From Parahoeflea alexandrii (GTDB lineage Bacteria > Pseudomonadota > Alphaproteobacteria > Rhizobiales > Rhizobiaceae), in assembly GCF_027214025.1 (NCBI RefSeq), contig NZ_JAPWHB010000001.1:310001-374000 (forward strand): a DNA stretch of 64,000 nucleotides, given 5' to 3'. Shown here piece by piece: positions 8,582 to 30,883 of the stretch (positions are counted from its first letter, which is position 1; every line of letters begins with the position of its first letter). The position numbers and the translations under genes were made by a program. The notes under the pieces are model-generated. The model was given only the letters and a program-made list of their open reading frames with translations, had not been told where the DNA came from and made no database searches.

Positions 8582-8600
8582 CCAGCGGGCTTTGCCAGGC

Positions 8601-8798
8601 TCAATGCGTGCCGATATCCTCCACGCCGACGCGATCGGCGAGCTCGACCAACCAACCGATGATTGCGCGCTCGTCCACCCCGAGCGCTTCGGCGTCCCGC
8701 AATGCCGCGGCCCGGCTTCTGAAATCCCGCCAATGCAGGATGAAATCCATGAGATCCCGGGTTTCGAAGATATTCCTGTCCATCAACACGACTGCCAC
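8601..8798 (-). CDS. Small hypothetical protein
   Basis: 65 residues from GTG 8798, or 60 from ATG 8783 (MDRNIFETRD). It is convergent with the IclR-type gene, whose stop lies 19 bases away. Composition is balanced and protein-like: an N-terminal DLMDFILHWRDFRSRAAAL helix and a second IIGWLVELADRVGVEDI helix. It resembles small uncharacterised proteins annotated in other rhizobial genomes, but I cannot name a family. It might be a cytoplasmic two-helix protein. The main doubt is whether it is expressed at all. Confidence 0.45.
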   Translation of the reverse strand: MAVVLMDRNIFETRDLMDFILHWRDFRSRAAALRDAEALGVDERAIIGWLVELADRVGVEDIGTH

Positions 8799-8918
8799 AC
8801 TGTTGTCATTGCGGAAAATCTAGCAACTTTCGGCGGCTGGGCACCGTGAATAAAACGTGAAGCCGCTGGTTTTCCAGCCCTGCCAGAGTTATCCTCGGTT
8901 GCAATCGGGGATGGGCTG
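8799..8918 (+). promoter_or_regulatory. Leader and probable promoter of the accessory operon
   Basis: Non-coding stretch upstream of the SARP-like regulator gene. It contains a small GCTGG-TTTT-CCAGC hairpin (8865-8878) and a GGGGAT ribosome-binding element before ATG 8919. The segment around 8850 is A-rich. No clear promoter hexamers or operator could be identified. Confidence 0.35.
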
Positions 8919-11675: not shown

Positions 11676-11687
11676 CGGGAGTTGACG

Positions 11688-14000: not shown

Positions 14001-14219
14001 ACGGGCGGGACTGCTGCCTCCGAGCGAAGTCGATGGCTTCACAACCGGCACGGAGCCTCGGTTGCCGGCGCTCATCGGCGATTTTGCCTGAACCTTTTGT
14101 AAAAACGCAGCAATCCGAGATATCCGCGCGATTTCTCTTTCACGCTTTTTTCACTCACGCGGCAAGGTCGATCGGCAGCACACTCACCTCAAGATGAATT
14201 GCATCGCCAGGAGGTGATC
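14001..14219 (+). promoter_or_regulatory. Largest gap inside the accessory operon; possible internal promoter
   Basis: 219 bases between the subtilase stop and the membrane protein start, in an operon whose other gaps are 0-40 bases. The middle (about 14090-14155) is richer in A and T than its surroundings, with T-runs at 14130-14150, and could hold a second promoter. No terminator hairpin with a U-run was seen. The segment ends with a strong AGGAGGTGATC ribosome-binding site. Confidence 0.4.
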
Positions 14220-15389
14220 ATGCAGGGCAGACTTGGGTGGATACCGGCAATCATCGTATCGGTGAGCATCCTGTGCTTCTCCTACGGCCTCTATACGGTC
14301 TACATGGCCGGATCGATCCTCGGCGAAACCAGTCGTTCCTTCAGTTCCAACGTCGGCGGGTCTCCGGACTTCCAGGCACGTATCGCGAAAAGCTGTGCAG
14401 CCGATCCCCGCGGCGCCGTGTGCCCGCATCTGGAGAACCCGGGGAAGCTGGCGTCGTGCTGGGCGAAGGACGCCGCTGACGCGCCCGGCGAAGCGGCCTG
14501 CGCACAGGCCTGGAGCCTGTCGCTGAGCGCCACGGTCGAGGAACGCACCAGGCAGATGCAAGGCCTGCCGGGATGGATCGACGCCCGGGCCGTCAGGTTT
14601 GCGAGCGCCTCGGCGCAGGCCCTTCAGGCACCCTATCTGCTGCTGCTTGCCAGCCTCGCCGCTCTCTTCGCGGCCATCGGCTACGGGGTGACCGGCAGCA
14701 TCTGGGGCATCGCCGTCAACCAGAACCGCCGGCTGTCGCTTTCGCAATCGCAAGCGGTTCTCTGGAGCACGCTGATCATTTCCGGGTACGCGGTCATGGC
14801 GCTCTTCAATGTCGGCGCCATGGCATGGAGCAGCTCCGCGCTGGATTCCGGCAAGGAGATCTTTCCCGACATCGACTGGTCGGTCTTCGCGCTGATGGGT
14901 CTTGCAGCAGCGGTGCCGATGACCACCTCGGTGATAACCGATGCCCGCCCGCTGGATGCGACCTATGCTCCGAAAGGCATGATCGGCGGGGCGCAAGTCG
15001 GCCTGGCCGCACCGGAGCGCAACGAGGCGGCGCAGAAGGCATCGCTCTTCGACCTGTTCCTGGGCGAAGACATCAAGACCAAGGACCGGATCGATCTGAC
15101 CCGGGTACAGAACCTCCTGTTCTCGGTGCTGCTGTTGATGGCCTATTCCAGCGCGCTTGTCTCGTCGCTTCATCTGCTCGGGCCGGGGGTGCTGCTCGAC
15201 AGCGCTTCGGGCGGCTTGCGGGTGTTCGAGGCGATGCCTTCACCGGGCGCAAACTTCCTGACGCTCGCGGGCCTTGCCAATGCGGCCTACCTGATCGGCA
15301 AGTTCACACCCGGAAAGGCCAACCCGGCCCAGCCGGCCGGTGCGGACGACGCCGCTGGCGCCGACCAGAACATCGGAGCAGGCATATGA
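14220..15389 (+). CDS. Polytopic membrane protein with four-cysteine ectodomain, unknown function
   Basis: 389 residues. ATG 14220 is chosen because of a near-perfect AGGAGGTGATC immediately upstream; seven extra N-terminal codons from 14199 are less likely. Hydrophobic segments lie at about 7-29, 138-158, 177-202, 217-240, 297-322 and 343-361. The loop of about 105 residues after the first helix holds four cysteines (59, 68, 80, 94), suggesting two disulfides and a periplasmic location. A cytoplasmic-looking segment NQNRRLSLSQSQAVLWS precedes helix three. The C-terminal 25 residues are Ala/Pro/Asp-rich. Its TGA overlaps the ATG of the 2436-residue protein gene, so the two are translationally coupled and may form a complex. 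I do not recognise the family; a membrane anchor or channel for the giant proteins is an inference. Confidence 0.8.
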   Translation: MQGRLGWIPAIIVSVSILCFSYGLYTVYMAGSILGETSRSFSSNVGGSPDFQARIAKSCAADPRGAVCPHLENPGKLASCWAKDAADAPGEAACAQAWSLSLSATVEERTRQMQGLPGWIDARAVRFASASAQALQAPYLLLLASLAALFAAIGYGVTGSIWGIAVNQNRRLSLSQSQAVLWSTLIISGYAVMALFNVGAMAWSSSALDSGKEIFPDIDWSVFALMGLAAAVPMTTSVITDARPLDATYAPKGMIGGAQVGLAAPERNEAAQKASLFDLFLGEDIKTKDRIDLTRVQNLLFSVLLLMAYSSALVSSLHLLGPGVLLDSASGGLRVFEAMPSPGANFLTLAGLANAAYLIGKFTPGKANPAQPAGADDAAGADQNIGAGI

Positions 15390-18300
15390 GCACCACCCTT
15401 CTCTCGTTTCGCATGTTCGGCCGGTTTCACTGGCCGCCGCTCAATCGCGCCATCGGTGAGCCGGCCGGCGACCTGCGCGATGGCTGCGTTGAAATCCACT
15501 ATCACCAGGCGGCGGAGGGCGAGCCATATTACGCGCTGATGCGATGGCTCGCCGCTCCGGAAAACCACGCTCAACGAACCGACTGGATCAAGCAGACCAG
15601 ACCGGTCGGTGATCTCGAGGCGATCCGGTCGCTGCCCTACACCGATGACGAGGACCTTGCCGAGATCGTCGAGGGTGGTGATTTCAGCCTGTGGCTGAAC
15701 AAGCCCCCGGCAGCGCCAGCTCCGAATCCTCATACCAGACCGAGGCTGTCCTTCTTCGGCGGCACGGTCTTCGATCAGTTCGACGACCTGCCCGACTACA
15801 CCGCAGGCCCCTACCCCAAGCCCACGCTGCGCTGGCCACTGGTGCCGGAAGTCGCCTTCGGCGGCCGCCATTCGGGGATCATTTTCGGGCAGAGACAGAG
15901 CGAGACCAGCTTCAACCACAATTTCCGGATTTCGCTCAACCTGCCAAGTCCGTTGGCGCCGGACGGCACGCTGAACGAGGCGGGGGCCGTCCGCTTCTCC
16001 GGGGTTTTCAAGCCCGAGGCCGGCGCACGAAACGATTGCGGCGCACTTTCCATCCTCGCCGTGGACGGCGACGACAGTACGCACTCGCTTCCCTCCCAAT
16101 ACAACAGGTTCGGCCGCTTCAACCTTTCGGATGGCGCTTCCGACATGGCCAAGGGCTATGTCAGCACCGGCGCGACGCGCTTCTGGGGTAAAGCCAGGCC
16201 GGATCTGGCGACCCTTCTGGAAGCCTGCGGCGCGGTCGTCACAGAGAAGAAATCGACCAGGGAGATCACCGGCGGAGACGAGACTACAAGAAGTCTTCGC
16301 TTCGGCGATGACAATGGCGACCTGATCACGATCCGCCGCATTGCCTTCAAGGCCAACGGTTTGCGCCTCAACCTGCCGCGCGAAGGCGTGAGCGACTTTA
16401 CCTTCCCGGCAGACACGACCCTGAAGGCCGATATCGAACTGGCGTCTGCGGTCTCGGACGAGGCTATCGCCGGGGACATACGAGCGCCAGGCGCGTTTTC
16501 CCTGAGAGTACACTGGCTCTGGAAGGAAACCATCTCCGATGCCGCGGGCGCGGGCATGCCACGCACATTCAAGGAAGCATCCTCCGACGACACCTGGTTC
16601 GAAAGAGCCCTGCACAATGCGATCGTCTCCATGCACCAGACGCGGCTGGCACTGCAGACGGTCCGTGACGAACAGCCGGCGAGCTTTCTTCCCGAACTGT
16701 CGGTCGAAAAAGGCGGCAAGGTTCTTCTGACCCTGGTGCGCAGCGCCAAGGTGCAGAGAAATCCCGAAAGCGGCACAGTGCTGTGGGGCGAAGGCAATGC
16801 GTCCACCCGCAACCCGGCCGATGGCACGCAACGGCTTCGTCTTTCGCTGGCGCCGCCGCTGCTGCCCGGAGACAACGCTTCCAGGCCGGTGTTCCGGGCC
16901 TATTTCCCGGGGTTTCAGGCACCCTGGCTGCCGGACCCGAAAAACCCCTACGACCACCATCATCTTGAGTTCGGCTTCGACGAGCAGGTTTATGCCGAAC
17001 CGACAGGCCGCTCCTTTGCCTTCTTCAGGATCTCCGAGCGGGAGGACGCGAGCAAGCACCGGCCAAGATTCTCCGGACGGCTGGGCAGCCTGACCTTGGA
17101 CCGGGCCGCCGACAGGCCGCTGCTGCGCGAAAACATCGTCAAGCGGAGCGAACCGGAAAATCAGAAGACGGCAACGCTGGCGCCGAACAACTGGCTTCGG
17201 CTGCATCCCCGGCAAGCGCTGACAGACAGCAGTGTCCTGACGTCGAACGGGTCGAAGGCGAGCCGGTATGAACTCGATGGACCGATGGCGGTCGCGCTCA
17301 AGCTTCAGATCGCCATTGACGCCGTGCGTCCGGTCGCGACGACCGTGCGCTATGGCGACCGGAGCGACCGCATGCCGCCGCTGCTGATCCCGCTTGCCGC
17401 GCCGGACAGTTCAAGCGACGGCGACTTCATCCTCGACGTGCAGGAGACGGTGAGCGACGATGCCGATCGGCGGCTCGCTGCGGAGCTCCTCTTCGCGACG
17501 GAAACCGGCGGTTCGCAGGATTTCGTGCTGCTCGGGCGGGAGCCGTGGACGGTCAAGCAGTTTTCGATGCGGCGGCTGGGTTCGGAAGCCAATGCCGGCA
17601 GCGGCACCATTGCCGACTATGACAGCGACACCCAGCAATGGGCATTCAAGGCGCCGGAGGAACCCTATTCCTACGTACTTCCGCCGATGGTGACCGGCGA
17701 CAGCGCCGACAAGCCGCGGCGGCTGGAGATCCATGACCGTGGGCCCGATGACCGGCATCCCGGGCCATTTGCTGCTGATGGCAACGGATTGAAACGCTTC
17801 GCCGTCGAATCCCGGTTCGGACCGTCGACACGGCTCTGGGTCGACCCGGACGACCTCGACAACAAGCTCATTCCGGCGCCGTGGGCGGACCACGACCTGT
17901 TCCGGTCACGGCAGGTCGGCGGCGCCGGAGTGGCCCTCAAGGGGTTTCGCGGGGAGTTTCTCTACGGCATGCCGGTCGGTATTGACGCCACCGGAAATGT
18001 CAGCCGGGTGCGCGTGTCGGAGATCGATGCGGTCGTCGGGGAAATGCCCTACCCCGACCTGGATGACACGGTCTTCCAGGGGCCGCTCGACAGGCGCTGG
18101 GCCGGACTGTCCGAAGCCTATCGGCAAAGGCCTGAAAGGCTGGAGTTCTGGCAGGCCGACAGCGAGAACCTGCTGGCGTTTGCCTATGCCCGTTTCACCA
18201 ACGGCGTGGACTTCGCGTTGCGTCACACCGCCCTGCACAGGCATCCGACCAGCGACGAGATCGAACCCACGCAGAATGCCGCTGCGCCGCGGCTTCGCTA

Positions 18301-21300
18301 TCATCCCAGAGGCTTGAGCGGCGGCGCGCTCTGGCCCATCGAATCCGCCAACCTGGCGCGCTACATCGGCGACAATCCGGAATCGGATGGCGGCGCCATC
18401 GAGCGGATCGCCCTGTCGCCGATGGGCGGAGATGCCGACCAGGCGGCGAAGTTCCTCAAACGGCAGGTCTCGATCATCTCGGAAACCCGCGCCGGCTTCG
18501 TCCAGCGCCAGAAGGTCGAGGTGATTGGCCGCATCGGGGTGTTCTGGCACCGCGCCAAGCACGTGGTCGTCTATGAACGCACGGTCAGCCCGTCCGAACA
18601 GTTTCCCGCCGAGGGTGCAACGCGGTCGCGCCGGCCGATCCTGCGCAAGGTCAGCGAATATGTCGAGATTCTGGAGCCGGAACGGGTCTATCCGGACTTT
18701 CCCGATGTCGCCGCGCGCAGCGTCGGGCCACTGCAGGCGGTGCGGTTCAATTCACGCATCATCCATGTCGACAGCGCCTGGAGCGAGGACCTGGGCAATT
18801 ATGGCTGGCGCATCCCGTTGTGGAACCATCACAGCGCGCGACAGAACCCGCGCATCTACCCTCAACCGGATGTCTCTTTCGTCACGCGGGCGGAGGGCAC
18901 CGCCGAAACCGCCACGACCGCGCAGGAATGCCGCAACCCGGACAACATCTTCTTTGTCGCCGATTTCGAGACCGGGGGCGACCGGACGGACCTGTGGCCG
19001 CCGCGCCCGGGCGTCGATTTCTCGCTGCTGCCCGATCCCGGCCTGAAAATCTTCGAGCAGCGCAGCAAAGCGGGAGACGACGAGAAACGCGTCCGCAACG
19101 TGACCCGCATCCCGACCGGGTTTGGCCGGTTCACCTGGCGGCTCGCGACCTCGGGCCAGCGCACGCAGATCAACGCCAACCGGGCCAGCAAGCCGATCTT
19201 CGTCGACCTGGAAAGCATCACCTTCATGCGGTCGGTGCCAGCCACCAACACCCACGCCAAGCATGCCGCGAAACTGGATAAGGCCTCCCAAGCCTTGGGG
19301 GCGCTCGGACACGGAGAAACAGAGCGCCCCCGCCTTCCCTACTGGCACAAGAATGCCGACGCACCCGCAGGTTTCGAAGTCGTGGGTGTAGAACTGACGA
19401 AATTGAACGAGGCGGTTGAGAACAAAGAGAGGCTTGAGGAAGCCGACAAGCCGTTGGAAGAGCTCGTAGCGGCGGACAAGGTCATTGTCGAAGCGAAAAA
19501 GGCTCTCGAAAAAGCGCTCTCCGATTTTCAAAATTCACCTCCCGCCGACGTCGCAAGCGTTGCCAGAAGGATCAATGCCCTCATCGGGTCCGAGGCCTCC
19601 CTGCTTCCCGATCTCGCCGGGCTTCCAAGCGGGAAGTTTTGCAAGAAACTGGAGACCGACATTTCGGGTACCTTGCGGCGCAAGAAGCTGATGTTGCTCG
19701 ACGGAATCAGGGGCATTCAGGCCGAGACCGAAGCGTGGATCATCGCGACACCGGGACTGACAAGAGAAACTGTCGGAAAGGACGTCGAGACGGCCGTCAT
19801 CAAGGCGCTCGAACCGTTGCTGTCGGAAGCGAGCGCCGACATCGGCAGGCTCGGCAGCGGGGTGCAGTCCGCGCGTCTCATCGTCGCCGACCTGCACGGC
19901 GACATCCAGACAAGCCTTGAAAGGACCTTGCGCAGGATCGACGAACTCAACAAGAGCTATGACAGGGCAAAGCCCTGGTCGGCCAATCGCCTCGACGGCT
20001 TCGCACGCAAGCTCGACGACCTCACGAGCGGTATCGGCGACGACATCAACGCCGCCCTCACCGAGGCGCGCCAGAGGCTAGCCGGCGAACTGGAAGGCCT
20101 TTCCGCCAAGCTCGCTGCCGCCCTCTCTTGCGAGCTGGGCCGGCTGGTGACAACCCGAGACCTGCTCGATGACGCCATCTGGAACGGCGCGGGACGGGTC
20201 CGGGAGATCGCCGGCGAACTCGCGCTCAAGACCGATGCTTTGACGTCCGCCGACGGCCCCCTCGCCAAGGCGCAGGCCAAGATCGACGACCTCATGCAGA
20301 AAGGCCCGAATGCAACCCAGAAGGCGATCCTGGAAAAGCTCTCGGCAACGCTGAAGACCATCAGCGGGCTTGCGCAAACCGCCTCGATCAGCCTCGAGAG
20401 CCTGGCAGCCAAGGTTGATGGAACTGCGGCCTCGCTTTCCGAAGTGCTGGTCGAAGCGGCGAGTATCATCGCCACGACACTGATCGGCGCAACGAACTAC
20501 GGCCAGGCACTTATCGACGAACTTGCCAATCTCAATGACGAGTTCTTCGATGATCTTGACGATCTCGCCGCAGAGGTTTCAAGCACACTCGGTTCGGCTC
20601 AGGAATGGATGACCGGCGAGATTGCGCGTCTTGCCCGCATGGGCGAACAGGCGGACCGGCTGGTGGCGCGGGTTCGCGGAACGGCACAGCGGGTCATCGC
20701 CGATGTCGGCGCGATGGAGACTGAAGCGGCGGCTTTCATCGACCGGGCCGCCGGCGACCTGATTGCAGCGGCGAAGGACGTGCAGGACATGCTGGCGCCG
20801 TCCGCGATTGTCTCAACGATCCTCCGGCCTATGGTGATCCATCCGACGCTCGATGCGGTATTCTCCCGGTTTCCGGTCGAGATCATGGACGAAACGACTC
20901 GGAATACGGCGCTTGCGGCCGTCCGCAGCCTTGCGCAGGAAGCGGAGAACCGCCTCGACGGTCTTGAGGGGGCTACCCTTCCGGGGACAGAGGCGATTGC
21001 AGACCGCTGCGCAGCGCTCGGAAGCTCGCTCGATGACATCTATGGACAATTGGAGGATGTGCAGGAGGCCCTAAAGAAAAAGGCGAAGGCTCTCGTCACC
21101 GACCTTTCCGGTCTCAACGACGCCGAGGCCATCATCGCCGCGATAAACAAGACCGACCGCGCGGTTCGGGCGCTGGCCAATGATTTCGGGCAGTCGGTCG
21201 ATGCGGCGGAGGCCTATTCGCACCGGGTCGTAGATGCGCTCGGGAGTGTTTCAGACGGCGGCGCTTCGGCCTTTCCGAACAATGTCCTCAGGCTTTACTC

Positions 21301-22696
21301 GGCGGCGACCAGCGCGCCGGAACTCGGGCAATTGCGCGCCAATATCGACCGCATGCGGATGAACTTCGATGCGCTGTCGGACATCATCGCCAACACGCCG
21401 GCCAAGGCCTATCTCGACCGCCTGGGCGACGAGCTCAAGGCGATGGGCCTGTCCATCCCGTTCGACCGCATCGGCGAAACGCTGCTGCCGAGCGATCTCA
21501 GCAACTTCGATCTCAACCGGCTGATCCCCGACTTCGGCGGCATCAACCTGTCGAAACTGTTTCCGGGGCTCAAGGCGCCCGGCGCGCTTCGCGATGCGAT
21601 CCGGATTTCCCATGACTTCGATGCAAAGACCAAGCGGGCCTGGGTGCAGATCGACGTCAACGTCAACCTGCCGCAGCGCGCGAAGCTGTTCTCGGCCGGC
21701 CCGTTCCGGATGGACTTCGTCGACAGCCGGCTCAACGGGTTCGTGCGGCTGGAAGCCGCCGCCGACACAGAACAGGTCAGCCAGAGCGACCATGCAACGC
21801 TGAGCACGAACCTGGAAGCCCTCGTCTCCGGCCAGAAGATGGCGGGCTTTGAAAAACTCGCCATCCACTACACCAAGCAAGACGGCACCGATGTCGATTT
21901 CGATCCCGCCAACATCAAGCTCAACGACGTGCTGCAGTTCGTGCAGGACACGCTCGGGACCATCTTTCCCGACAGGGTCGGCATGCTCAACATCATCAAG
22001 GATCGCGGCATTCCGATCGGCTTCGAGAACGAGTTCTCGATGCCGGCGATCAGCCTGAATTATGCAACATCCGGCATCAGCAACATCCAGATCTCGAACC
22101 GCTTCCGGCTGGTCGCCTATCCGGACTTCCTGATCGCAAACCGCTTCAACCTGTCCAAACAGGAACTGCCGTTCATCTTCTCGTTCTTCATCCTGGGCGG
22201 CACCGGATACGTGCAGGTGGACACCGAATACCGCCCGTTCGATGGGCAGCTTATGGTTCTGGTCTCGGCGGGCGCCGGCGCCTCGGCGGCTATCGGATTT
22301 GCCTTCGGTCCCGTATCAGGGTCGGTCTTCATCACGCTCAGCGTCGTGCTTTCTTACCGGAAACTCATCGGCAACGACAACAGCAGCAGCCTCTCCGTCG
22401 GCCTGTCGCTGGTCGTCGCCGGCAATGTCGACGTCTGCGGGATCGTCAGCGTCTATATCGGCCTGATGCTCGACCTGACCTATCGCGACAACGGCCAGAT
22501 CGACGCCAACGGCCGGCTGGTGCTGACAATCCGCATCTCGCGTTTCTTCAAGATCAGGGTCCGCACGGAGGTTCAGTACAAGCTTCGCGGCGGTCGATCG
22601 GAAACCGTGACCCGGACAACGACGGGCCTGACCGCCTCGGATGATGTCCAGAAGAAGCTCGACAAACTCAAAAAAGCGACCGCAGCACTGCAGTGA
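15386..22696 (+). CDS. Giant protein A, 2436 residues, unknown family
   Basis: The start is ATG 15386, overlapping the membrane protein stop as ATGA; the frame happens to stay open for 271 more codons upstream but is only out-of-frame membrane-protein sequence. The protein is roughly 260 kDa, with no signal peptide, no RTX repeats and no enzyme motif that I recognise. Residues 1 to about 1330 are mixed, aromatic- and proline-containing beta-rich sequence, including YERTVSPSEQF and LPPMVTGDS. Residues about 1335-2040 are Ala/Leu/Glu-rich and strongly helical or coiled-coil (ERLEEADKPLEELVAADKV, LAKAQAKIDDLMQK). Residues about 2070-2400 are alternating polar/apolar beta strands with glycine-rich stretches (VSAGAGASAAIGFAFGPVSG, RISRFFKIRVRTEVQYKLRG). 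The head/long coil/beta-tail layout suggests a structural or surface-associated fibre, or an effector, rather than an enzyme. It is followed by giant protein B nine bases later. The gene is certain; its role is not. Confidence 0.85.
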   Translation: MSTTLLSFRMFGRFHWPPLNRAIGEPAGDLRDGCVEIHYHQAAEGEPYYALMRWLAAPENHAQRTDWIKQTRPVGDLEAIRSLPYTDDEDLAEIVEGGDFSLWLNKPPAAPAPNPHTRPRLSFFGGTVFDQFDDLPDYTAGPYPKPTLRWPLVPEVAFGGRHSGIIFGQRQSETSFNHNFRISLNLPSPLAPDGTLNEAGAVRFSGVFKPEAGARNDCGALSILAVDGDDSTHSLPSQYNRFGRFNLSDGASDMAKGYVSTGATRFWGKARPDLATLLEACGAVVTEKKSTREITGGDETTRSLRFGDDNGDLITIRRIAFKANGLRLNLPREGVSDFTFPADTTLKADIELASAVSDEAIAGDIRAPGAFSLRVHWLWKETISDAAGAGMPRTFKEASSDDTWFERALHNAIVSMHQTRLALQTVRDEQPASFLPELSVEKGGKVLLTLVRSAKVQRNPESGTVLWGEGNASTRNPADGTQRLRLSLAPPLLPGDNASRPVFRAYFPGFQAPWLPDPKNPYDHHHLEFGFDEQVYAEPTGRSFAFFRISEREDASKHRPRFSGRLGSLTLDRAADRPLLRENIVKRSEPENQKTATLAPNNWLRLHPRQALTDSSVLTSNGSKASRYELDGPMAVALKLQIAIDAVRPVATTVRYGDRSDRMPPLLIPLAAPDSSSDGDFILDVQETVSDDADRRLAAELLFATETGGSQDFVLLGREPWTVKQFSMRRLGSEANAGSGTIADYDSDTQQWAFKAPEEPYSYVLPPMVTGDSADKPRRLEIHDRGPDDRHPGPFAADGNGLKRFAVESRFGPSTRLWVDPDDLDNKLIPAPWADHDLFRSRQVGGAGVALKGFRGEFLYGMPVGIDATGNVSRVRVSEIDAVVGEMPYPDLDDTVFQGPLDRRWAGLSEAYRQRPERLEFWQADSENLLAFAYARFTNGVDFALRHTALHRHPTSDEIEPTQNAAAPRLRYHPRGLSGGALWPIESANLARYIGDNPESDGGAIERIALSPMGGDADQAAKFLKRQVSIISETRAGFVQRQKVEVIGRIGVFWHRAKHVVVYERTVSPSEQFPAEGATRSRRPILRKVSEYVEILEPERVYPDFPDVAARSVGPLQAVRFNSRIIHVDSAWSEDLGNYGWRIPLWNHHSARQNPRIYPQPDVSFVTRAEGTAETATTAQECRNPDNIFFVADFETGGDRTDLWPPRPGVDFSLLPDPGLKIFEQRSKAGDDEKRVRNVTRIPTGFGRFTWRLATSGQRTQINANRASKPIFVDLESITFMRSVPATNTHAKHAAKLDKASQALGALGHGETERPRLPYWHKNADAPAGFEVVGVELTKLNEAVENKERLEEADKPLEELVAADKVIVEAKKALEKALSDFQNSPPADVASVARRINALIGSEASLLPDLAGLPSGKFCKKLETDISGTLRRKKLMLLDGIRGIQAETEAWIIATPGLTRETVGKDVETAVIKALEPLLSEASADIGRLGSGVQSARLIVADLHGDIQTSLERTLRRIDELNKSYDRAKPWSANRLDGFARKLDDLTSGIGDDINAALTEARQRLAGELEGLSAKLAAALSCELGRLVTTRDLLDDAIWNGAGRVREIAGELALKTDALTSADGPLAKAQAKIDDLMQKGPNATQKAILEKLSATLKTISGLAQTASISLESLAAKVDGTAASLSEVLVEAASIIATTLIGATNYGQALIDELANLNDEFFDDLDDLAAEVSSTLGSAQEWMTGEIARLARMGEQADRLVARVRGTAQRVIADVGAMETEAAAFIDRAAGDLIAAAKDVQDMLAPSAIVSTILRPMVIHPTLDAVFSRFPVEIMDETTRNTALAAVRSLAQEAENRLDGLEGATLPGTEAIADRCAALGSSLDDIYGQLEDVQEALKKKAKALVTDLSGLNDAEAIIAAINKTDRAVRALANDFGQSVDAAEAYSHRVVDALGSVSDGGASAFPNNVLRLYSAATSAPELGQLRANIDRMRMNFDALSDIIANTPAKAYLDRLGDELKAMGLSIPFDRIGETLLPSDLSNFDLNRLIPDFGGINLSKLFPGLKAPGALRDAIRISHDFDAKTKRAWVQIDVNVNLPQRAKLFSAGPFRMDFVDSRLNGFVRLEAAADTEQVSQSDHATLSTNLEALVSGQKMAGFEKLAIHYTKQDGTDVDFDPANIKLNDVLQFVQDTLGTIFPDRVGMLNIIKDRGIPIGFENEFSMPAISLNYATSGISNIQISNRFRLVAYPDFLIANRFNLSKQELPFIFSFFILGGTGYVQVDTEYRPFDGQLMVLVSAGAGASAAIGFAFGPVSGSVFITLSVVLSYRKLIGNDNSSSLSVGLSLVVAGNVDVCGIVSVYIGLMLDLTYRDNGQIDANGRLVLTIRISRFFKIRVRTEVQYKLRGGRSETVTRTTTGLTASDDVQKKLDKLKKATAALQ

Positions 22697-22705
22697 GGTT
22701 TCGCC

Positions 22706-25700
22706 ATGGAAAACGACCAGCAATTCCTTTGCACCGTCAGCCGCCAACCCGCGGGGTTTGACGCGCAGCAAAACGGCACCTTCTCTGTCTTCACGAGCTT
22801 CGAGTGGCAAGGCGCCGAGGAAGGCGGACGCGATGCCTATGAGCGTTTTCTTGCCCGTCAGCGCGGTTTCCAATTCAGGTTCTTCGAAGTGGATCTGGGC
22901 GAGGACGTGATTGAGGCGCTCAAGGCCGGAGACCCCCGCACACTTGAGGCGCGTCCTGTCGAGACGACCGAAATCACGGTCGAGGGACAAGGGACCGCCG
23001 ATCCCGCCTTGGTCATGGGGTGGCTCGACAAGCGCAACGATGGCCAAGGCAACGGTTTCTGGCGGACACCGGGGATGAGTGTTGTCGGCGCCGTCAACGC
23101 GACGGACCTCAAGGCAAGTCACGCACTTTCGGGGTTGCGGCAGTCGATGGCGCCCGTCGCCGAGATGGTCGGGCTGCGCCGTCGGGTCCATCCCGAGGCC
23201 GTGGCGGCCGACAGTGTCGCAGCCCCGCGCGTCTGGCTGTTGCTTGCCTTTGACGAGGCACCGCCAACCGATGTCATCGAGGTCACCGCATATGCCTATC
23301 GGGTAGAGGGCGGTGAAAGGCTCCTGAGCCTCACCTATCCGAACGGGGCGGAAGAGGTTCATTACACCGTCAACCTGTGGACCGGAGCCCCGCCGGCAGC
23401 CTTGCCGAGGTCGATCGTCGGGGCCGATGGATTTGTCGCCCTGAAGCAAAGCGGACCGGAAGCGCAGGCGTTGCTGCAGCATTTCGAGGAACGTTGCCAC
23501 GGGCTGTTCTGGACCCTGCCTAAACTGCAGCAGCCGGAGGTATTCAAAAGGATCGGCAGGTTCGAAACCGAGCCGGCAGCGCCGCCGCACCCCAACCGAG
23601 CGGCGTTCGACATCATCGATATCGCGGTCGCCGGCTGCATTTCGGCCCTCGATCCCATCGTGCTGGCACTGCGAATGCCGGGCCTCTCCGATAGCGAGGA
23701 ACCGCCGGAAGGAAACCTGCTCGAACACCTTGTCGATGCAGTGCTGGTCGCCTGCGCGAAAGCCGCGGAAGGCCTGGAGGACGGCAATCCGCTGCAAGCG
23801 CGGCTCGAAGCGCTTGATGGCACCGGGGTTTTGCGGATCCTGCGGGACACCATCGCCAACAATCCGCTGTGTAAGGAAGGAACGCCGAGCGAGATTGTTG
23901 CCGAGTTGCGCCGCGTTCTCGATCTGGCAAGCGCACCGGACGTTCTCTCCCGGCTTGTCGGCCTCCACGACAAATCAGATGATGAGAAACTTGCTGCGAT
24001 TGCCAAACTTTATGAGGCGTTTCCGGCCACCGGCGCCCACCACTCGGGCATCGCTGCGGCGCTTGAGGGGGCGCTGCAGGACCTGGCCCTCTCGCTGAGC
24101 ACGGAATCCGGCGCCGAAAAGGCAGCGATCCGGCTGATTGCCGGCTCGGGAACCGGTGGCGTCGTGAACGCATTGTTGCCTGAAGGACTGGCGGACGACC
24201 AGCGCAAGATCGTCGAGACCGCATTGAACAGGGCCTGGGGCGATTTCACCGCCTTCCTCAACGGGCCTTTCAACGGTTTCGAAGCGATCCGGCGCAGCAA
24301 CAACCACCTGTTCGCCTGGGCGGCGTCGCTGGGGCCGAACGGAGAGGGTATCGGCGAACAGCAGGCCCTTGCCGATGTCATCCGGGCCAATGGCTTCTTG
24401 GCGACACGCTGGGGTCCGCCCGCCGCCGTGCCGGTTCCCGCGGCACGCCCGACGTCTTCCAGCGAAGCCTTCGCGCATCTGGCGGGGTCGCTATGGCACA
24501 TGCCGAACGGATTGCGATCGTACCTGCGGAAAGCGCTGATCGAAGGCTCGGGAAGAGAGATCGACGAAATCCTGTCGGAAACCGGCTTCCGCCCAGACCT
24601 GCAGCCGCGTCCCTTGCCGATCCAGATCGCCAGGACGGCCAACCCGGACGACGCGGCCGCTTTCAACCACAGCTACAGCGGCGTGTGCGCATTGTTGCGC
24701 GCGCGGGGCGAACCATGGCGGACCCCGAATGTCTGCGGTCTGGACATCTACGATCCAGGTACGGATTCCTACCGGGATTACACTTCCCTGCCCTATCTCG
24801 GCCCGGTGACGCCAACCGCCAACAACGGCATCTCCAAAGCCTTCATCGGCTATGAAGGCAGGCCTTTCACATCCCGCGTTTTCGACGAGACCAAACCGCA
24901 AGGCGCCGAAACGGCGGTGGCGGACGCCTTTGCGCCGGTCTACAGGCTCGACAGCTTCGACTTCGATCCGGAGACAGCGCCGGCCTGGGCCGGCTCGCCG
25001 CCGTTGGCCTACGGGGTCTCCTACCAGCTGATCGAATTCGCCGTCGCGTCCGACGGGACGCTACCTCTCGCCTTGCAGACATCCGCGAACGAACCATGGC
25101 GGATGCAGATAGGTGAGGATTTCCCCGACGGCGTCGTCCCGGGGCTCATGCCGATCGACATCTCCTGCAGCCGGCGAACCGCCATCGGCCGGACGGAATT
25201 CCAGGCAGACGAGGAAACCGGCACGGCTGCACGGATCGGCGCCACGTTCGAAAATGTCATGCCGCTGGCAGCGGACTATCCGCGGCTTGCGCTTTCGCAG
25301 CACGAGGTGCGGGACCTGTTCCGGCAATCATCAGGCGAAGGCGCATTGCGTCTGGCGCACGTGCAGGATGCGGCGGCGGCAACGAAAACGAACACCAAGG
25401 ACGGCGAAGGCGGCAATCATGGCGAGCCGATCGGGATATCGATTGCCAATGTAAAGGCTTACGCCGCCAAGACCCTGAAAATCGGCGTCCTTTCCGACCC
25501 CAGGACCGGCCCAGAAAGCCCGGCTGGCGGGGCGGGCATTCCGTATGTGGAGGTATCGATCCCGAAAGGCTATCGCTCGCTGCAGATCGAATTCTCCAAG
25601 CGCACGGCCGACTCGGCTGAACTGACGGTGAGGTGGGACGGCAACACCGCGGCCAGGATTGAAATACCGGTCGACGAAGCGCGCCTGTACTGGCTCAGAT

Positions 25701-28700
25701 TGGAAATCGACGCGGGAAGCCTGTCCTTCGAGGCACCGGTGCTTTCATCCGGCCAGGCGGCGGAACCACCCAACTTCCCGCAGCCACCACTGCTGCTGCT
25801 GGCGCAAGAAGGGCACGGCTTCAGGGACCGTTTCGGCGAGGCCGCAACGATTCAGGTCAGTCATCCCAGGATGGGAATCGAGGATGTGGAACGCTGGCTT
25901 GCCAATCCCGACCTGGTCGCCGCCGCCGGGTTAACCAAGACAGGCAGTCTCGATCGCTTCATGGATGCGCTGCGGGCCGCGCGCATTGTCGCCGTCTGCG
26001 ACGAGAAGATCGCCACGTTGCTCGACCGCCTGCCCGATCTGGCGGTCAGCGGCCTGCTGTTCGAACTGCTGCCGCTCGACAGTCTTGAGCATGACTTCGA
26101 TGGTTCGAAATCCGTGTTCGTTCCCTCCCCTGACCTACGCGACTTCGACCCGGTGCCACGGGGCGATGATGCTGTCGGCAGCTCGTTGAAAACGCTAAGA
26201 AACCTGTCCGAAGCGTACATCACGGCCGTCACCGTTTCGGGAACCGGGTCGGATTTCGGTTTGCAGCGGTCGGGACGCAATGTCCTTGTCTCTGTGCCGG
26301 AGGGTGCGGTTGCGCTGCTCCGGGTGCGGCCCGCCATCAACCCGGGACTGATGACCGAGGGGCGGTTTGGCGCAAGCCCCCTGCATGCGGGCCTCGGCCA
26401 GCTCGCCGTGGGCAGATGCGAGCACGGCGGAACCGAGCTCCTGCTGTTTGAAGGCAACAGCCTGACGCTTGAAACCATGAGCCCGGCCTTCGAAGCAAAC
26501 AAGACTGGTCTCATTGCCGAAGCCGAGACGCGCCTGCGTATCATCCCGGGCGTCGCCGAGGCCAATTCAGGCGCCAGCGACAGCCATGCGCGATCCTATG
26601 GTCTTTACGCAGACGCCCCGGCGAGCCAGGCTTCGGACAATCTGTGGCGCCTTGTCGGGCGGATCGATGTGGGAACGCAACGCTGGGTCACGACCGGCAA
26701 GCCGATCTATTCATGGGTCGATCCGCTCAAGATCGTTCATGCGATCGACCCGGCAAGCGGCGCGGGAACCCGCACGCCGATTGCCGATCTGAGCCTGCGG
26801 CCATCCGCCGATCCCGGATTGGCCGCTCACTACGATGACCTGCTTGCCTTCGAGAAAGAGGCGTTCCACCAGCGCGGCGACATTGACGAGCGTGCGCCCC
26901 CGGTCCGGCTGGAGCCTCTTCCGGCGCGAACCTTGCTCAAGTCCGTCCAGTGGGACGACCCGACGGCCACCTGGTTCCGCCACCGGTTCACGCTGCGCTC
27001 GCGCTACGAGGGAGCCTATGCGGAATCCAGCAAGGCGACGATCAAGGCCTGGCAAGAGGGCGCCGATCCCTGGCTCAAGCGTGCAGTCGTGCTGGCCGAC
27101 GCGAGCCGGATCGAGCCAACGCGGCCGCAGCAGCGCGCCTTGCTGCCCCTGACCAAAGCGCCCGCCGACAATGCCGACCCGGCGCTTGCGGCACCGCCGA
27201 TCCTGACCATCCTGCAGGAGCCGCCGCATGCGGTTGGCGGACTTGCCGACAGGATCGTCTGCGGGCTGCAGACCAGCCTTGGCTTCGAGACGTTCAAGCA
27301 GCAGGCAAAAGACGGCGGCGACTCCGGCAAGGACAGCGTACGGATCCGCGACGCACGCAAGGAAATCGGCCCGGATCCGCGTCTGAAGCAGTCGCTCTAC
27401 AAGACAGGTCCGGACAATTCCGATCCGGCCGCGGGCGTGGCCCTGCAGGTGGAAGGGCCGATCGGGCTGACATTCGAGCCGAAATCGGCGGATCCGCGGT
27501 ATGCGAACACCGCCTTCATGCTGCTTGCAGCGGATTATGGCGATAATCCGCTGGCGCCGCTCGACTTCGAGGAGAGCTTCCTTGGTGTGAAGAGCCTGCG
27601 TTACCTTCATCCGGGCTGGACCTTTCATGCCGATGCAAGCGAGCGACCCGACCTTGGCAAACAGACTGCATGGATCGAATTCGAGGGAGCGGGCGAAATA
27701 CGGATCGGCACGCAGACCGCCATCGCCGTCCGGCACGAGGGCCGGTGCCGGAAAGTGGAAATCGCGCGCAAGCTCCTGCGCAGGCAAGAGGCCATGGACG
27801 CCGAACCCATCCTTCTGGCGAGGGTCGATGCATTCGAGACCCTGGCGCTGCTGCATGCGCCGATTGCCCCGGACAGCTATCTGCTCGCAGCCTTCGGCAT
27901 TCCCGGTGGCGCAAGCGTCAAGGGAAGCGGCAACCAGCCCATCCTGCTCGCAACCATCGAATGGAGCTCCGCCGGGCTGACCGCTAGCGACGCGGCAACC
28001 GCGGCCGGCGCAGACCTTCGATTTGGCATCGAGGGCAAACACCGGATTTTTCCCTGCGTCGCATCGCGGCCGACATTCGCCGAATGGACCCGCACGGCGC
28101 GGAACTTCGATGTGGCGTCGATCCTTCGCTCGCCCGACGACGGTTCGCCGCCCGACCGGCACAGCGCCACCTTCGCCGACATCATCGCGACCGGCTCTGC
28201 GAGCGGCGGCGAGACAGCTCTGCGGTTCCTCGGCGATGACGGCCTGCCGGTCTGGCTCCGCCCTTCCGTCCAGGCCTCACCCTTCGCCCAGCACGTTCAC
28301 AGGCACATGGCGGCAATCATCACAGAACGCGACCATGCGCTTGGCCGGCCGGCACGCATCTTCCACTCAATCATCAGGGCCGACGGCGCGGAACCGGTGC
28401 TGCCATTCGATGCGACCGATCTGCTGGAGCCGCAGATCCATCTGCTGGAATTCGAATCGCCCGCACGTCCGCTTGCATATGGCTTGCCCGCTCCGCTCGA
28501 CAAGCAATTCGGTTTCTATGATCTCGATCTCAGATCGGTCCTTACCGGGCCGGATGCAACCGGCGAATTTGCCTGGACTGGCATCCTGCTGTCCGGGCGA
28601 TTTCCCGTCACGACGAGAGGCATTTCGAATATCCGCTTCCGCCTGACCGGCAGCAACGCCGACAACGACGCCTGCGAGTTCGACCTGCCCTTGGCGGAGG

Positions 28701-29116
28701 GCCCGTACTGCCAGTTCGAAATACTTCTGTCGCGCGAAGCCGTGCCGGCGGCCGGAAGCAGGCTCGTCGTCAGCAAGAGCCTGATCACCGGCCGGGGAAC
28801 GCGCGAGGATGCGGGAACCGACGAGCGACCGGTTCCGGCGGGCGCATTCCTGTCGCTGCGGATCGCCGGTCTTCAGGCGGATACGCCCGTGACCGAATTC
28901 TGGTGCGATCTCTCCCACAAGGCTTGGACCGGCAGTGGCGGGATGGGCGAACCCAATCCCCTGACCTGGCTTTTCAGCGACAGCGACATGATCGCCGACA
29001 GGAGAAATGCCCGTGAAGCCACGAGGGCGGCACAGCTGGCCGGCCTGACGGAAGCGCAGGCCAGGATCGTGTCCATCTCCCCCGCCCTACCTTTGAGGCT
29101 CGACCGGGAGAATTGA
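22706..29116 (+). CDS. Giant protein B, 2136 residues, unknown family
   Basis: ATG 22706 lies nine bases after the stop of giant protein A with GAGG at good distance. The protein is about 230 kDa with no signal peptide, no membrane helix and no recognised catalytic motif. Residues about 1-290 are mixed alpha/beta (FTSFEWQGAEEGG, RVWLLLAFDEAPPTDVIEV). Residues about 290-640 are predominantly helical. The remaining 1500 residues are mixed and beta-rich, with segments such as TWFRHRFTLRSRYEGAYAES and PQIHLLEFESPARPLAYGLP. It lacks the long coiled-coil section of protein A and I saw no extended similarity between the two. Tight coupling suggests equimolar expression and a shared complex. It could be a scaffold or a second subunit of a large assembly. 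No function can be assigned. Confidence 0.83.
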   Translation: MENDQQFLCTVSRQPAGFDAQQNGTFSVFTSFEWQGAEEGGRDAYERFLARQRGFQFRFFEVDLGEDVIEALKAGDPRTLEARPVETTEITVEGQGTADPALVMGWLDKRNDGQGNGFWRTPGMSVVGAVNATDLKASHALSGLRQSMAPVAEMVGLRRRVHPEAVAADSVAAPRVWLLLAFDEAPPTDVIEVTAYAYRVEGGERLLSLTYPNGAEEVHYTVNLWTGAPPAALPRSIVGADGFVALKQSGPEAQALLQHFEERCHGLFWTLPKLQQPEVFKRIGRFETEPAAPPHPNRAAFDIIDIAVAGCISALDPIVLALRMPGLSDSEEPPEGNLLEHLVDAVLVACAKAAEGLEDGNPLQARLEALDGTGVLRILRDTIANNPLCKEGTPSEIVAELRRVLDLASAPDVLSRLVGLHDKSDDEKLAAIAKLYEAFPATGAHHSGIAAALEGALQDLALSLSTESGAEKAAIRLIAGSGTGGVVNALLPEGLADDQRKIVETALNRAWGDFTAFLNGPFNGFEAIRRSNNHLFAWAASLGPNGEGIGEQQALADVIRANGFLATRWGPPAAVPVPAARPTSSSEAFAHLAGSLWHMPNGLRSYLRKALIEGSGREIDEILSETGFRPDLQPRPLPIQIARTANPDDAAAFNHSYSGVCALLRARGEPWRTPNVCGLDIYDPGTDSYRDYTSLPYLGPVTPTANNGISKAFIGYEGRPFTSRVFDETKPQGAETAVADAFAPVYRLDSFDFDPETAPAWAGSPPLAYGVSYQLIEFAVASDGTLPLALQTSANEPWRMQIGEDFPDGVVPGLMPIDISCSRRTAIGRTEFQADEETGTAARIGATFENVMPLAADYPRLALSQHEVRDLFRQSSGEGALRLAHVQDAAAATKTNTKDGEGGNHGEPIGISIANVKAYAAKTLKIGVLSDPRTGPESPAGGAGIPYVEVSIPKGYRSLQIEFSKRTADSAELTVRWDGNTAARIEIPVDEARLYWLRLEIDAGSLSFEAPVLSSGQAAEPPNFPQPPLLLLAQEGHGFRDRFGEAATIQVSHPRMGIEDVERWLANPDLVAAAGLTKTGSLDRFMDALRAARIVAVCDEKIATLLDRLPDLAVSGLLFELLPLDSLEHDFDGSKSVFVPSPDLRDFDPVPRGDDAVGSSLKTLRNLSEAYITAVTVSGTGSDFGLQRSGRNVLVSVPEGAVALLRVRPAINPGLMTEGRFGASPLHAGLGQLAVGRCEHGGTELLLFEGNSLTLETMSPAFEANKTGLIAEAETRLRIIPGVAEANSGASDSHARSYGLYADAPASQASDNLWRLVGRIDVGTQRWVTTGKPIYSWVDPLKIVHAIDPASGAGTRTPIADLSLRPSADPGLAAHYDDLLAFEKEAFHQRGDIDERAPPVRLEPLPARTLLKSVQWDDPTATWFRHRFTLRSRYEGAYAESSKATIKAWQEGADPWLKRAVVLADASRIEPTRPQQRALLPLTKAPADNADPALAAPPILTILQEPPHAVGGLADRIVCGLQTSLGFETFKQQAKDGGDSGKDSVRIRDARKEIGPDPRLKQSLYKTGPDNSDPAAGVALQVEGPIGLTFEPKSADPRYANTAFMLLAADYGDNPLAPLDFEESFLGVKSLRYLHPGWTFHADASERPDLGKQTAWIEFEGAGEIRIGTQTAIAVRHEGRCRKVEIARKLLRRQEAMDAEPILLARVDAFETLALLHAPIAPDSYLLAAFGIPGGASVKGSGNQPILLATIEWSSAGLTASDAATAAGADLRFGIEGKHRIFPCVASRPTFAEWTRTARNFDVASILRSPDDGSPPDRHSATFADIIATGSASGGETALRFLGDDGLPVWLRPSVQASPFAQHVHRHMAAIITERDHALGRPARIFHSIIRADGAEPVLPFDATDLLEPQIHLLEFESPARPLAYGLPAPLDKQFGFYDLDLRSVLTGPDATGEFAWTGILLSGRFPVTTRGISNIRFRLTGSNADNDACEFDLPLAEGPYCQFEILLSREAVPAAGSRLVVSKSLITGRGTREDAGTDERPVPAGAFLSLRIAGLQADTPVTEFWCDLSHKAWTGSGGMGEPNPLTWLFSDSDMIADRRNAREATRAAQLAGLTEAQARIVSISPALPLRLDREN

Positions 29117-29156
29117 TCCGCGGGTTTTCCAGCATTGCCCGAACCAGGAGACAGCA

Positions 29157-29732
29157 ATGGCCAGACTTGAAACCGAGTACCTGAAACAGATGGGGATCGA
29201 TCCGAGAGACTACAAACAGCCCATGACGGTGATCGTGCCACTCTCGGGGAGGAAGGTGAAGTTCGACAACTGGAAGGCAATTACCTACGCCAAGGACTAT
29301 TGCAACCGGAAGACTAACGCCTGCGGGGCCTATTATGACAAGCCCGGCAAGACCGATTGCGCGCATTTCATCGCGCATTGTCTGAGTGCCGGAGGCATCG
29401 ACATCAAGCCGGGTGACGGCAGCACGACCGACTGCCCGACAGGATTGGCAATGCGCAATACCGATCTCGTCGCCGGTTTGAGGGCGCTCACAACGGCTTA
29501 CAACAACGTTCAAGAACTGGGCATCGCGGATGCAATAATTGGCGACATCGGATTCCTCAACAACCTTATCCGACCATCGCACAGCTTCATGATTTGCGAA
29601 CCGGTCGATCTCCGCGATCCCCTGAAGCCGGCAAAGGTTTGGTCCCACACCGCCGCCCGTTGTTGCGACGACATGGGAGCGGAAATCCGGCAGTGGTTCG
29701 CCACGATGTTCCGCATCACCGACGCTGTTTGA
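29157..29732 (+). CDS. Small amidase-like / papain-fold cysteine hydrolase
   Basis: 191 residues, with GGAGACAGCA before the ATG. The pattern resembles the putative amidase domain (Amidase_6 type) of the NlpC/P60-papain superfamily: a YAKDYCNRK helix, the nucleophile motif TDCAHFIAHCLSAGG with Cys68, a GDIGF strand (Gly129-Asp130), His142 in RPSHSFMICEP, and a closing SHTAARCCDD with His164. In that family the Cys/His pair cleaves amide bonds in peptidoglycan or peptides. There is no signal peptide, so it would need another route to reach the wall or acts on cytoplasmic targets. It is the last gene of the accessory operon, 40 bases after giant protein B. It may be the enzymatic effector of the system or an assembly or processing factor. 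The family match is by motif only. Confidence 0.68.
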   Translation: MARLETEYLKQMGIDPRDYKQPMTVIVPLSGRKVKFDNWKAITYAKDYCNRKTNACGAYYDKPGKTDCAHFIAHCLSAGGIDIKPGDGSTTDCPTGLAMRNTDLVAGLRALTTAYNNVQELGIADAIIGDIGFLNNLIRPSHSFMICEPVDLRDPLKPAKVWSHTAARCCDDMGAEIRQWFATMFRITDAV

Positions 29733-29892
29733 TTGGAGCACCGTTTGCAACGAGTATTCGCTGGCCTCGACCTGCAGCAGCCGTGTGACCGACGGCAGAG
29801 ACATTTACCGCCATTTGCGAATCACCGGCATTGAGGTCACGGCGGCGGCAATAGCCAAGGCTGCGCGGAAGCTGGATCAGCGGGCGACCTGA
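29731..29892 (+). pseudogene. Possible gene remnant or very short ORF
   Basis: One frame overlapping the amidase stop by two bases reads as protein-like sequence for 53 codons and ends at TGA 29890-29892. The translation includes GRDIYRHLRITGIEVTAAAI followed by AKAARKLDQRAT, an amphipathic pattern unlike random high-GC translation. No ATG opens it; an in-frame GTG near 29785 would give only about 35 residues. It could be a decayed 3' end of a gene at the border of the accessory block, or chance. Confidence 0.28.
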
Positions 29893-30053
29893 AGGCTTCT
29901 CGTTCCCCACGAGGCCGCCGGAACGGTTTCCCGCAACGTCCGGAACATAACCCTCTGAATTTCAGACCTAAACTCCCGCCCATTGGCATTGTATACGCAA
30001 CATTTGCAGCCATGCCGGGCGTTCCGTTCCCGTTTCTGGTTCGCGCCTCCAAT

Positions 30054-30068
30054 GTTCTTTCATTGTTT
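30054..30068. promoter_or_regulatory. Secondary imperfect SOS box (GTTC-N7-GTTT)
   Basis: GTTC, seven bases, then GTTT: one mismatch from the alphaproteobacterial direct-repeat LexA box GTTC-N7-GTTC. It sits 14 bases upstream of the perfect box and in the opposite orientation, so it may be a weak second site. Confidence 0.4.
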
Positions 30069-30082
30069 CTTTACCTCTTGCG

Positions 30083-30879: not shown

Positions 30880-30883
30880 AGCC

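What the first reader, a model, noticed from the sequence alone, without database searches (positions are those of the whole stretch)
22706..29116. 2136-residue partner protein with no recognisable domain
It directly follows giant protein A and is of similar size but lacks its coiled coil. Two co-translated proteins of this size without any identifiable domain are rare and probably build one complex.
Basis: seen in the sequence. Interest (0 to 1): 0.65.

Follow-up and report, generated by a model that had tools for sequence, protein, structure and literature searches.

The report
Giant partner of two-protein envelope module
The protein is one half of an undescribed, rare but widely scattered pair of giant bacterial proteins that travels between bacteria, often beside swappable cell-wall enzymes (sometimes bacterial Hedgehog), and probably acts on cell envelopes.

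Summary
Confirmed: an uninterrupted 2136-codon gene (B, 22706-29116) with no match in Pfam, NCBIfam, PHROGs or PADLOC. B is not an orphan. A genome scan gave 55 A loci, by record titles all from diderm phyla. Of 61 loci compiled, 55 carry a recognisable B after A; 5 end with the contig and 1 has an unrecognised large ORF. A and B trees agree (r = 0.93). B's core models well (pLDDT 82, pTM 0.80) and holds a galectin/ConA-like jelly roll. A's C-terminus models, less surely, as a porin-like beta-meander. No signal peptide is seen. A congener lacks the whole 21.4-kb block: a seven-gene island (TPR protein, PAP2, subtilase, membrane protein, A, B, amidase-like enzyme). Neighbouring wall enzymes differ between loci and include bacterial Hedgehog peptidase in two phyla. 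Most likely mechanism (inferred, about 0.4): B binds surface glycans and A inserts into or spans an envelope, with the wall enzyme opening peptidoglycan. Whether the envelope is a target's or the producer's own is open.

The parts
8586..30020 (.). Island (about 21.4 kb) carrying the whole module; absent from a congener
   Evidence: Congener G013 aligns to window 1-8585 (89%) and 30021-30882 (86%) with 206 bp between. No shared repeat longer than 9 bp between the two edge regions compared, no tRNA in the window
8919..10574 (+). 551-aa TPR protein, probably the regulator (SARP-like N-terminus by eye, from no call)
   Evidence: Pfam TPR_19 2e-8; homologue at 58% heads the same block before A-B in Bradyrhizobium L070
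10575..11675 (+). 366-aa PAP2-superfamily enzyme
   Evidence: PAP2 7e-10; homologue at 40% in L070
11682..14000 (+). 772-aa subtilase (S8); D, H, S motifs read by eye
   Evidence: Peptidase_S8 25.7 bits, cut-off 21.8; sequence; homologue at 37% in L070
14220..15389 (+). Membrane protein (hydrophobic segments by eye; ORF from TTG 14199, ATG 14220); overlaps the start of A by 4 bp
   Evidence: Coding frame and homology to the gene directly upstream of A in G195, 29% over 386 aa, E 1e-34; that relative has 6 hydrophobic segments
15386..22696 (+). Giant protein A, 2436 aa (corrected start)
   Evidence: Codon-position GC and 4-bp overlap; homology to the S. sojae protein begins at residue 7
17303..19285 (+). 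A conserved core (res 640-1300), 28 invariant columns in 52 sequences
   Evidence: Alignment A4
19283..21265 (+). A helical/coiled-coil region (approximate)
   Evidence: Apolipoprotein and tape-measure type weak hits; low conservation
21977..22657 (+). A C-terminal porin-like beta-meander (res 2198-2424)
   Evidence: AF2 pLDDT 79, pTM 0.45; CymA Z 14.8, 211 aligned, rmsd 4.5; OmpG Z 13.9, 191 aligned, rmsd 4.3; Foldseek porin E 2e-4 but TM only 0.21
22706..29116 (+). Giant protein B, 2136 aa (the finding)
24428..27685 (+). B conserved core (res 575-1660), confident multi-domain beta-rich model
   Evidence: AF2 pLDDT 82.3, pTM 0.80, 49 sequences
25274..25759 (+). Galectin/ConA-like jelly roll in B (res 857-1018); variable accessory domain
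   Evidence: VIA Z 9.1 to 8aa2_E, 111 aligned, rmsd 2.7; Foldseek best E 4e-3; columns 881-1000 filled in only 32-49% of 54 sequences
29157..29732 (+). 191-aa amidase-like (Amidase_6) enzyme 40 bp after B
   Evidence: Amidase_6 26.2 bits, cut-off 23.2; relative (28% over 155 aa) directly upstream of A in L026

Best explanation
B is the ligand-binding/scaffold subunit of a two-giant-protein module (A-B), carried on a horizontally moving island. Shown: the gene pair, its joint inheritance, the island, wall-enzyme neighbours in a part of the loci, and (as models only) the lectin-like and porin-like folds. Inferred: A and B are made in the cytosol and assemble into one large complex. B recognises envelope glycans through its jelly roll or other clade-specific domains. 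A bridges with its long helices and inserts or threads its beta-meander into an outer membrane. The partner wall enzyme (amidase, M23, M15/Hedgehog, L,D-transpeptidase type, deacetylase) opens or remodels peptidoglycan so that the complex can be released or can cross. My first choice is an envelope-attacking complex used against other diderm bacteria or predators.
For: Joint inheritance. Only diderm phyla among the 55 loci (41 Pseudomonadota, 7 Bacteroidota, 4 Planctomycetota, 1 each Acidobacteriota, Gemmatimonadota, Hydrogenedentota; phyla assigned by me from the titles, several being MAGs). A C-terminus: long strands with strong in/out alternation (mean 2.95 against 1.44 for B's strands) and porin matches. 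B jelly roll; among 49 B members one carries an LDL-receptor-type propeller and one an Ig-like domain (not shown whether the same one). Wall enzymes over the Pfam cut-off near A-B: window Amidase_6, L031 NodB deacetylase, L044 Tlde1, L047 Amidase_3, L059 Hedgehog, G195 M23, L028 Hedgehog, L047 M23; by clustering also L029, L048, L062, L064: 11 of 61 loci. Island with an empty site in a congener. No N-terminal hydrophobic segment in 60 of 61 A and 54 of 56 B by a hydropathy scan.
Against: The A C-terminal model has pTM 0.45, and its two faces could equally form a lipid groove (lipovitellin and MTP appear with low probability). No immunity gene or target was identified. The 20 neighbours scanned singly were picked by eye, and for most loci no wall enzyme is known; near and far tallies print only 25 of 116 and 25 of 131 families, patatin is equal in both, and near genes include integrases, regulators and housekeeping enzymes. 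The jelly-roll Z (9.1) is only moderately above the background of 7-8 that the tool states. The secretion route is unknown; a hydropathy scan is no signal-peptide predictor.
Confidence: 0.4

Rival explanations
1. A-B builds a structure of the producer's own envelope: a periplasm-spanning surface, adhesion or transport complex (lipid or polysaccharide), for which a membrane protein anchors and the wall enzyme clears space.
For: Membrane protein directly upstream of A in window and G195; the Hedgehog and M23 enzymes of L028, L029 and L047 have hydrophobic segments and would act on the producer's own wall; the beta-meander also resembles LptD and PelB barrels; a lectin-like fold suits adhesion.
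Against: No signal peptide seen on A or B and no C-terminal aromatic of barrel proteins on A (by eye); very patchy: 5 of 156 family genomes, in the genus only the window's own genome of 18.
Confidence: 0.25
2. B is a giant carbohydrate-active enzyme or glycan-degrading accessory protein; the jelly roll is the catalytic or binding part.
For: Structural matches include beta-glucanase, alginate lyase and levanase jelly rolls and a phage capsule depolymerase (E 2e-4); one neighbour is a polysaccharide deacetylase over the cut-off (L031).
Against: The jelly-roll columns are empty in half or more of the relatives, while the conserved residues lie elsewhere; among 49 members scanned, no family was hit by more than one.
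Confidence: 0.1
3. A-B is an intracellular anti-phage or abortive-infection system activated by the co-encoded protease.
For: Island location, patchy spread, subtilase in window, L070, L010, L052; defence-like neighbours in L008 and L010.
Against: No PADLOC match among 7 island proteins except a coil-type LmuB hit, E 0.002, in A; wall enzymes and porin-like part do not suit it; patatins as common at a distance.
Confidence: 0.12
4. A-B is a phage-tail or prophage-derived particle (A as tape measure).
For: Weak tape-measure PHROG hit on the coil, E 0.007; three IMG/VR contigs carry A (one is the Novosphingobium locus L017 again); tail-like genes by eye near L051.
Against: B has no match in 50,697 phage records; no tail family in the seven island proteins; the coil explains the hit.
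Confidence: 0.06

Closest known systems
Bacterial Hedgehog / M15 DD-peptidase clusters (PMC6027127, PMC8052667)
   Same: The same rare bacHh peptidase, membrane-anchored, among wall-cutting enzymes; its function is called unknown in PMC6027127
   Different: The passages I saw name proteases and wall hydrolases, not a giant protein pair; in L028, L029 and L059 the bacHh gene directly precedes A-B
Tc (ABC) toxin complexes (recalled)
   Same: Giant soluble proteins, long helical part, ligand-binding beta domains, no signal peptide
   Different: No Tc domain hit in A or B; C-terminus a beta-meander in the model
Outer-membrane porins CymA / OmpG
   Same: Beta-meander of long amphipathic strands, Z 14.8
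   Different: About 8% identity; part of a 2436-aa protein without visible signal peptide; ends in a helix
Galectin / ConA-like lectins
   Same: Jelly-roll arrangement, Z 8-9
   Different: About 10% identity; one accessory domain in a 2136-aa protein
Type 10 (holin/endolysin) secretion (recalled)
   Same: Giant cytosolic cargo beside wall hydrolases of exchangeable families
   Different: No holin recognised; deacetylases and L,D-transpeptidase types are not classical endolysins

Membership tests
A-B two-giant-protein module (defined here) | B homologue directly downstream of A | tested here: met
   Window gap 9 bp; 55 of 61 loci have it (one interrupted by 2 kb), 5 end at the contig, 1 with an unrecognised ORF
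A-B two-giant-protein module (defined here) | Co-inheritance of A and B | tested here: met
   r 0.93, 27 of 44 splits shared, 0 of 2000 shuffles reach it, 47 loci
A-B two-giant-protein module (defined here) | A and B bind each other | not testable with these tools
   Both AF2 jobs spent; the complex exceeds the length limit
Tc toxin complex | TcA/TcB/TcC sequence domains in A or B | tested here: not met
   No such hit at E<=1 in Pfam or E<=5 in NCBIfam; sequence only
Outer-membrane beta-barrel protein | Barrel-like meander of amphipathic strands | tested here: inconclusive
   Strand pattern and porin matches, but pTM 0.45 and Foldseek TM about 0.2: closure of a barrel is not shown
Outer-membrane beta-barrel protein | N-terminal signal peptide for the Sec/BAM route | tested here: not met
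   Hydropathy scan of the first 80 residues: none in window A, 1 of 61 A proteins positive; no dedicated predictor run
Galectin/ConA-like lectin | Jelly-roll fold | tested here: met
   The 50 rows listed lie on model 281-449, Z 7.7-9.1, moderate
Galectin/ConA-like lectin | Glycan binding | not testable with these tools
   No glycan assay; binding residues not examined
Anti-phage defence system | Match to a known defence protein | tested here: inconclusive
   7 island proteins against PADLOC: only a coil-type LmuB hit in A, E 0.002
Phage tail particle | Tail proteins in A, B or island | tested here: not met
   PHROGs on A, B and the membrane-protein ORF: only a coil hit in A; Pfam scans of the seven island proteins show no tail family

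The most novel reading that the evidence does not exclude
A-B is a new class of giant two-protein envelope-piercing machine of diderm bacteria: a soluble protein A delivers a porin-like beta structure, B aims it at surface glycans, and a swappable wall-cutting enzyme opens the peptidoglycan. Bacterial Hedgehog, a close relative of the animal Hedgehog signalling domain, is one of these enzymes, which would give bacHh a function and place the bacterial source of Hedgehog in an inter-bacterial conflict system.
Probability: 0.25. Interest if true: 0.9.

Novelty: categorically new. Interest (0 to 1): 0.65.

Why it matters
Two conserved proteins, mostly of about 1500-2500 residues each, found by record titles in six diderm phyla (three of them by a single MAG contig) and matched by no family model that I searched, are a real gap in protein annotation. 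If they act on envelopes with exchangeable wall enzymes, they would be a new kind of bacterial weapon or surface machine. The link to bacterial Hedgehog would make the open question of what bacHh does, and where animal Hedgehog came from, directly testable in laboratory bacteria.

Tried and rejected
Rejected: (1) A and B as paralogues: profile comparison probability 0. (3) bacHh as an obligate part of A-B: around the bacHh of Pararhizobium gei no gene of A or B size lies in 36 kb, and of 11 of its 35 annotated proteins compared only bacHh matched genes of our loci; of 61 A-B loci only L028, L029 and L059 show bacHh among the neighbours that I looked at. bacHh was found in 0 of 385 class genomes and 0 of 156 family genomes, but these searches rang in no control genome either, so they do not prove rarity. 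(4) Patatin as an enriched neighbour: 2 members near, 2 far. (5) A shared membrane-protein motif: only window, L022, L025, L037 and L064 plus one chance hit (L018), of 61 loci. (6) The IMG/VR hit L074 to Hedgehog is an M15-like stretch in a tape-measure-like protein (by eye). (7) Flanking direct repeats: nothing over 9 bp between 8501-8920 and 29734-30118. (8) Papers: seven searches listed no paper that describes the pair, as far as titles and abstract starts show; of three papers I saw passages and of one two sections; supplements and subscription papers were not searched.

PDB sequence profiles gave nothing for the B core, one hit at E 2.3 for the A core and almost only coil hits for the A C-terminus.

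Limits of counts: I set the B start for 8 loci (L069 was not recognised as B by a profile built without these 8) and moved it in 4 more, so their gaps are partly by construction. One of the 4 hits (G253) is weak and broken by stops. In some searches neighbours were thinned to one per cluster and to 90-1100 aa, without G195; 107 near, and 107 drawn from 197 far. The 61 loci include near-identical ones (for example L009, L043, L045), and L041 is the same contig as the earlier G050 hit. L010, L032, L035 and L038 carry broken or split copies, which were left as they are; L017 has a B cut by the contig end.
Full report
Observation. The ORF at 22706-29116 is real, 2136 aa, without internal stop, coding by codon-position GC and preserved in distant relatives. 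No family model matches B: Pfam, NCBIfam, PHROGs, PADLOC; nothing significant among PDB sequences or phage records. The partner A begins at 15386, not 14573: the stretch before it is the coding frame of a membrane protein (hydrophobic segments by eye) whose stop overlaps A's start by 4 bp and which has a homologue directly upstream of A in genome G195 (29% over 386 aa, E 1e-34).

Relatives. A first search found one plasmid relative of B (Sinorhizobium sojae) and few genomes: 4 of 397 in the order, its own included and one of them weak and broken. An alignment of six A proteins then found 55 loci in a collection of one genome per species. With the window, four plasmid loci and G195 this makes 61. 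By record titles the 55 are all from diderm phyla (41 Pseudomonadota, 7 Bacteroidota, 4 Planctomycetota, 1 each Acidobacteriota, Gemmatimonadota, Hydrogenedentota; phyla assigned by me, several records being MAGs). The search patterns came from proteobacterial sequences, which biases this count.

A and B are a pair. 56 of 61 loci extend past A and each of the 56 has a large ORF next; 55 of these are recognisable B. 48 were found by clustering and 8 taken by hand, of which 7 match a profile built without them at 293-1202 bits and L069 does not. The gap lies within -50..+50 bp in 55 of 56, L069 included (nine of -4 bp; 12 of the 56 starts set by me); L035 is interrupted by 2 kb. Distances on the two trees correlate at 0.93 for 47 loci, and at 0.94 for 21 loci of the window's clade; no shuffle of 2000 reaches either value; 27 of 44 splits are shared. 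In 398 genomes of the phylum, profiles of A and of B each rang in the same two genomes, the window's own and G359, where their positions on one contig and strand fit neighbours. This shows joint inheritance, not binding. A and B are not homologous to each other.

An island. The congener G013 aligns with window 1-8585 and, after 206 bp, with 30021-30882: 21.4 kb are present here and absent there. In the genus the A core was found only in the window's own genome (1 of 18), in the family in 5 of 156 genomes, its own included. The contig of congener G008, a 75%-complete genome, ends inside the right edge of the island at 90% identity, so that species may carry it. The island holds seven genes: TPR protein, PAP2, subtilase, membrane protein, A, B and an amidase-like enzyme. 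The first three also precede A-B in Bradyrhizobium L070 at 58, 40 and 37% identity, although B itself is there only distantly related (24% over 389 aa), so they probably belong to the module in these two; I did not find them as a block in the other loci.

Structure. B 575-1660, predicted with 49 sequences, has pLDDT 82 and pTM 0.80. Foldseek against PDB gives only weak matches (best E 4e-3), most of the 50 listed being ConA-like/galectin jelly rolls, and VIA-align places them at B 857-1018 (best Z 9.1, 111 residues, 2.7 A). Among viral models 7 have E below 0.001, led by a capsule depolymerase, and LamG/ConA-type proteins follow. These columns are filled in only 32-49% of 54 aligned B proteins; among 49 members one carries an LDL-receptor-type propeller and one an Ig-like domain, perhaps the same one. 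I read B as a scaffold with exchangeable ligand-binding domains. The rest of B was hardly tested. A's C-terminus (557 aa, 48 sequences) has pLDDT 79 but pTM 0.45. Its residues 2198-2424 match monomeric porins (CymA Z 14.8, 211 aligned, 4.5 A; OmpG 13.9; Foldseek E 2e-4 with TM about 0.2). Its strands are long (median 14) and alternate strongly between hydrophobic and polar (2.95 against 1.44 for B's strands). Lipid-binding sheets (lipovitellin, MTP) also appear among the weaker matches. A hydropathy scan of the first 80 residues is positive in 1 of 61 A and 2 of 56 B proteins; no signal-peptide predictor was run.

Neighbours. Genes beside A-B include wall enzymes of several unrelated families. 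Over the Pfam cut-off: Amidase_6 in the window, NodB deacetylase L031, Tlde1 L044, Amidase_3 L047 and Hedgehog L059, M23 in G195 and L047 and Hedgehog L028. Clustering adds L029, L048, L062 and L064, which makes 11 of 61 loci. DUF3238 (L017, L049) and DUF5675 (L066) are families of unknown function. Below cut-off or by motif only: L020, L024, L054, L008, L023. The 20 proteins were picked by eye, so this is no unbiased count. A tally of 107 near and 107 distant neighbours shows, among families with two or more members, M23, NodB, PG_binding_1 and DUF3238 near and no wall family far, but also GntR, FCD, S8, integrase and patatin near and patatin far; at least one PG-binding candidate (L016 8216-9553) looks like a chromosomal flank. 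I therefore call the association likely, not proven. Hedgehog is the strongest case: L028 and L029 (sister loci of Alphaproteobacteria) and L059 (Planctomycetota), all MAG contigs, have it 53-151 bp before A, with the H-x6-D and H-x-H zinc motifs intact, whereas 0 of 385 and 0 of 156 genomes have it at all (no positive control rang). PMC6027127 (passages and two sections read) states that the function of bacHh is unknown and that its N-terminal membrane part is shared with other zinc peptidases. PMC8052667 (passages read) reports bacHh among wall hydrolases and proteases in Mesorhizobium and Bradyrhizobium. The passages that I saw do not mention a giant pair.

Mechanism. The anatomy (soluble giants, lectin-like and porin-like parts, wall enzymes, diderm hosts) points to the cell envelope. 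Whether it is the envelope of a competitor or the producer's own is not decided. I prefer the first because of the patchy, island-borne spread and the missing signal peptides, at about 0.4. The pair fits no known system that I could test, so I rate it as a new kind, with an unproven function.

Noticed in passing
   Followed up: yes
L028 7700-8671, L029 7710-8687, L059 4521-4967: Bacterial Hedgehog (PF01085) genes sit directly before A-B in two phyla (L029 by clustering with L028).
   Followed up: partly
window 10575-11675; L070 4647-5747: The PAP2 protein starts with a run of AAH triplets; its relative in Bradyrhizobium has a run of GGF triplets at the same end.
   Followed up: no
L010, L032, L035, L038: Split or interrupted copies of A or B, suggesting that the module is dispensable and decays.
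   Followed up: no
L009, L043, L045, L050; L016, L035, L038: A-B sits at the same chromosomal or plasmid site in groups of rhizobia (before a pantoate-ligase gene; beside a glyA-like gene by eye), possible insertion hot spots.
   Followed up: no
L051 3704-6127; L072, L073: A-B near tail tape-measure-like genes (by eye) in Hyphomicrobium and on two further IMG/VR contigs; may be prophage flanks or misassigned viral contigs.
   Followed up: no
L075 2892-18438: The bacHh of a Pararhizobium gei conjugative plasmid lies in another cluster with a metallopeptidase, a caspase-like protein (by eye), a 1374-aa phospholipase-D-like protein and a muramidase.
   Followed up: partly
L096 (G008): A congener's contig ends inside the right edge of the island at 90% identity, so at least one other congener may carry it.
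   Followed up: no
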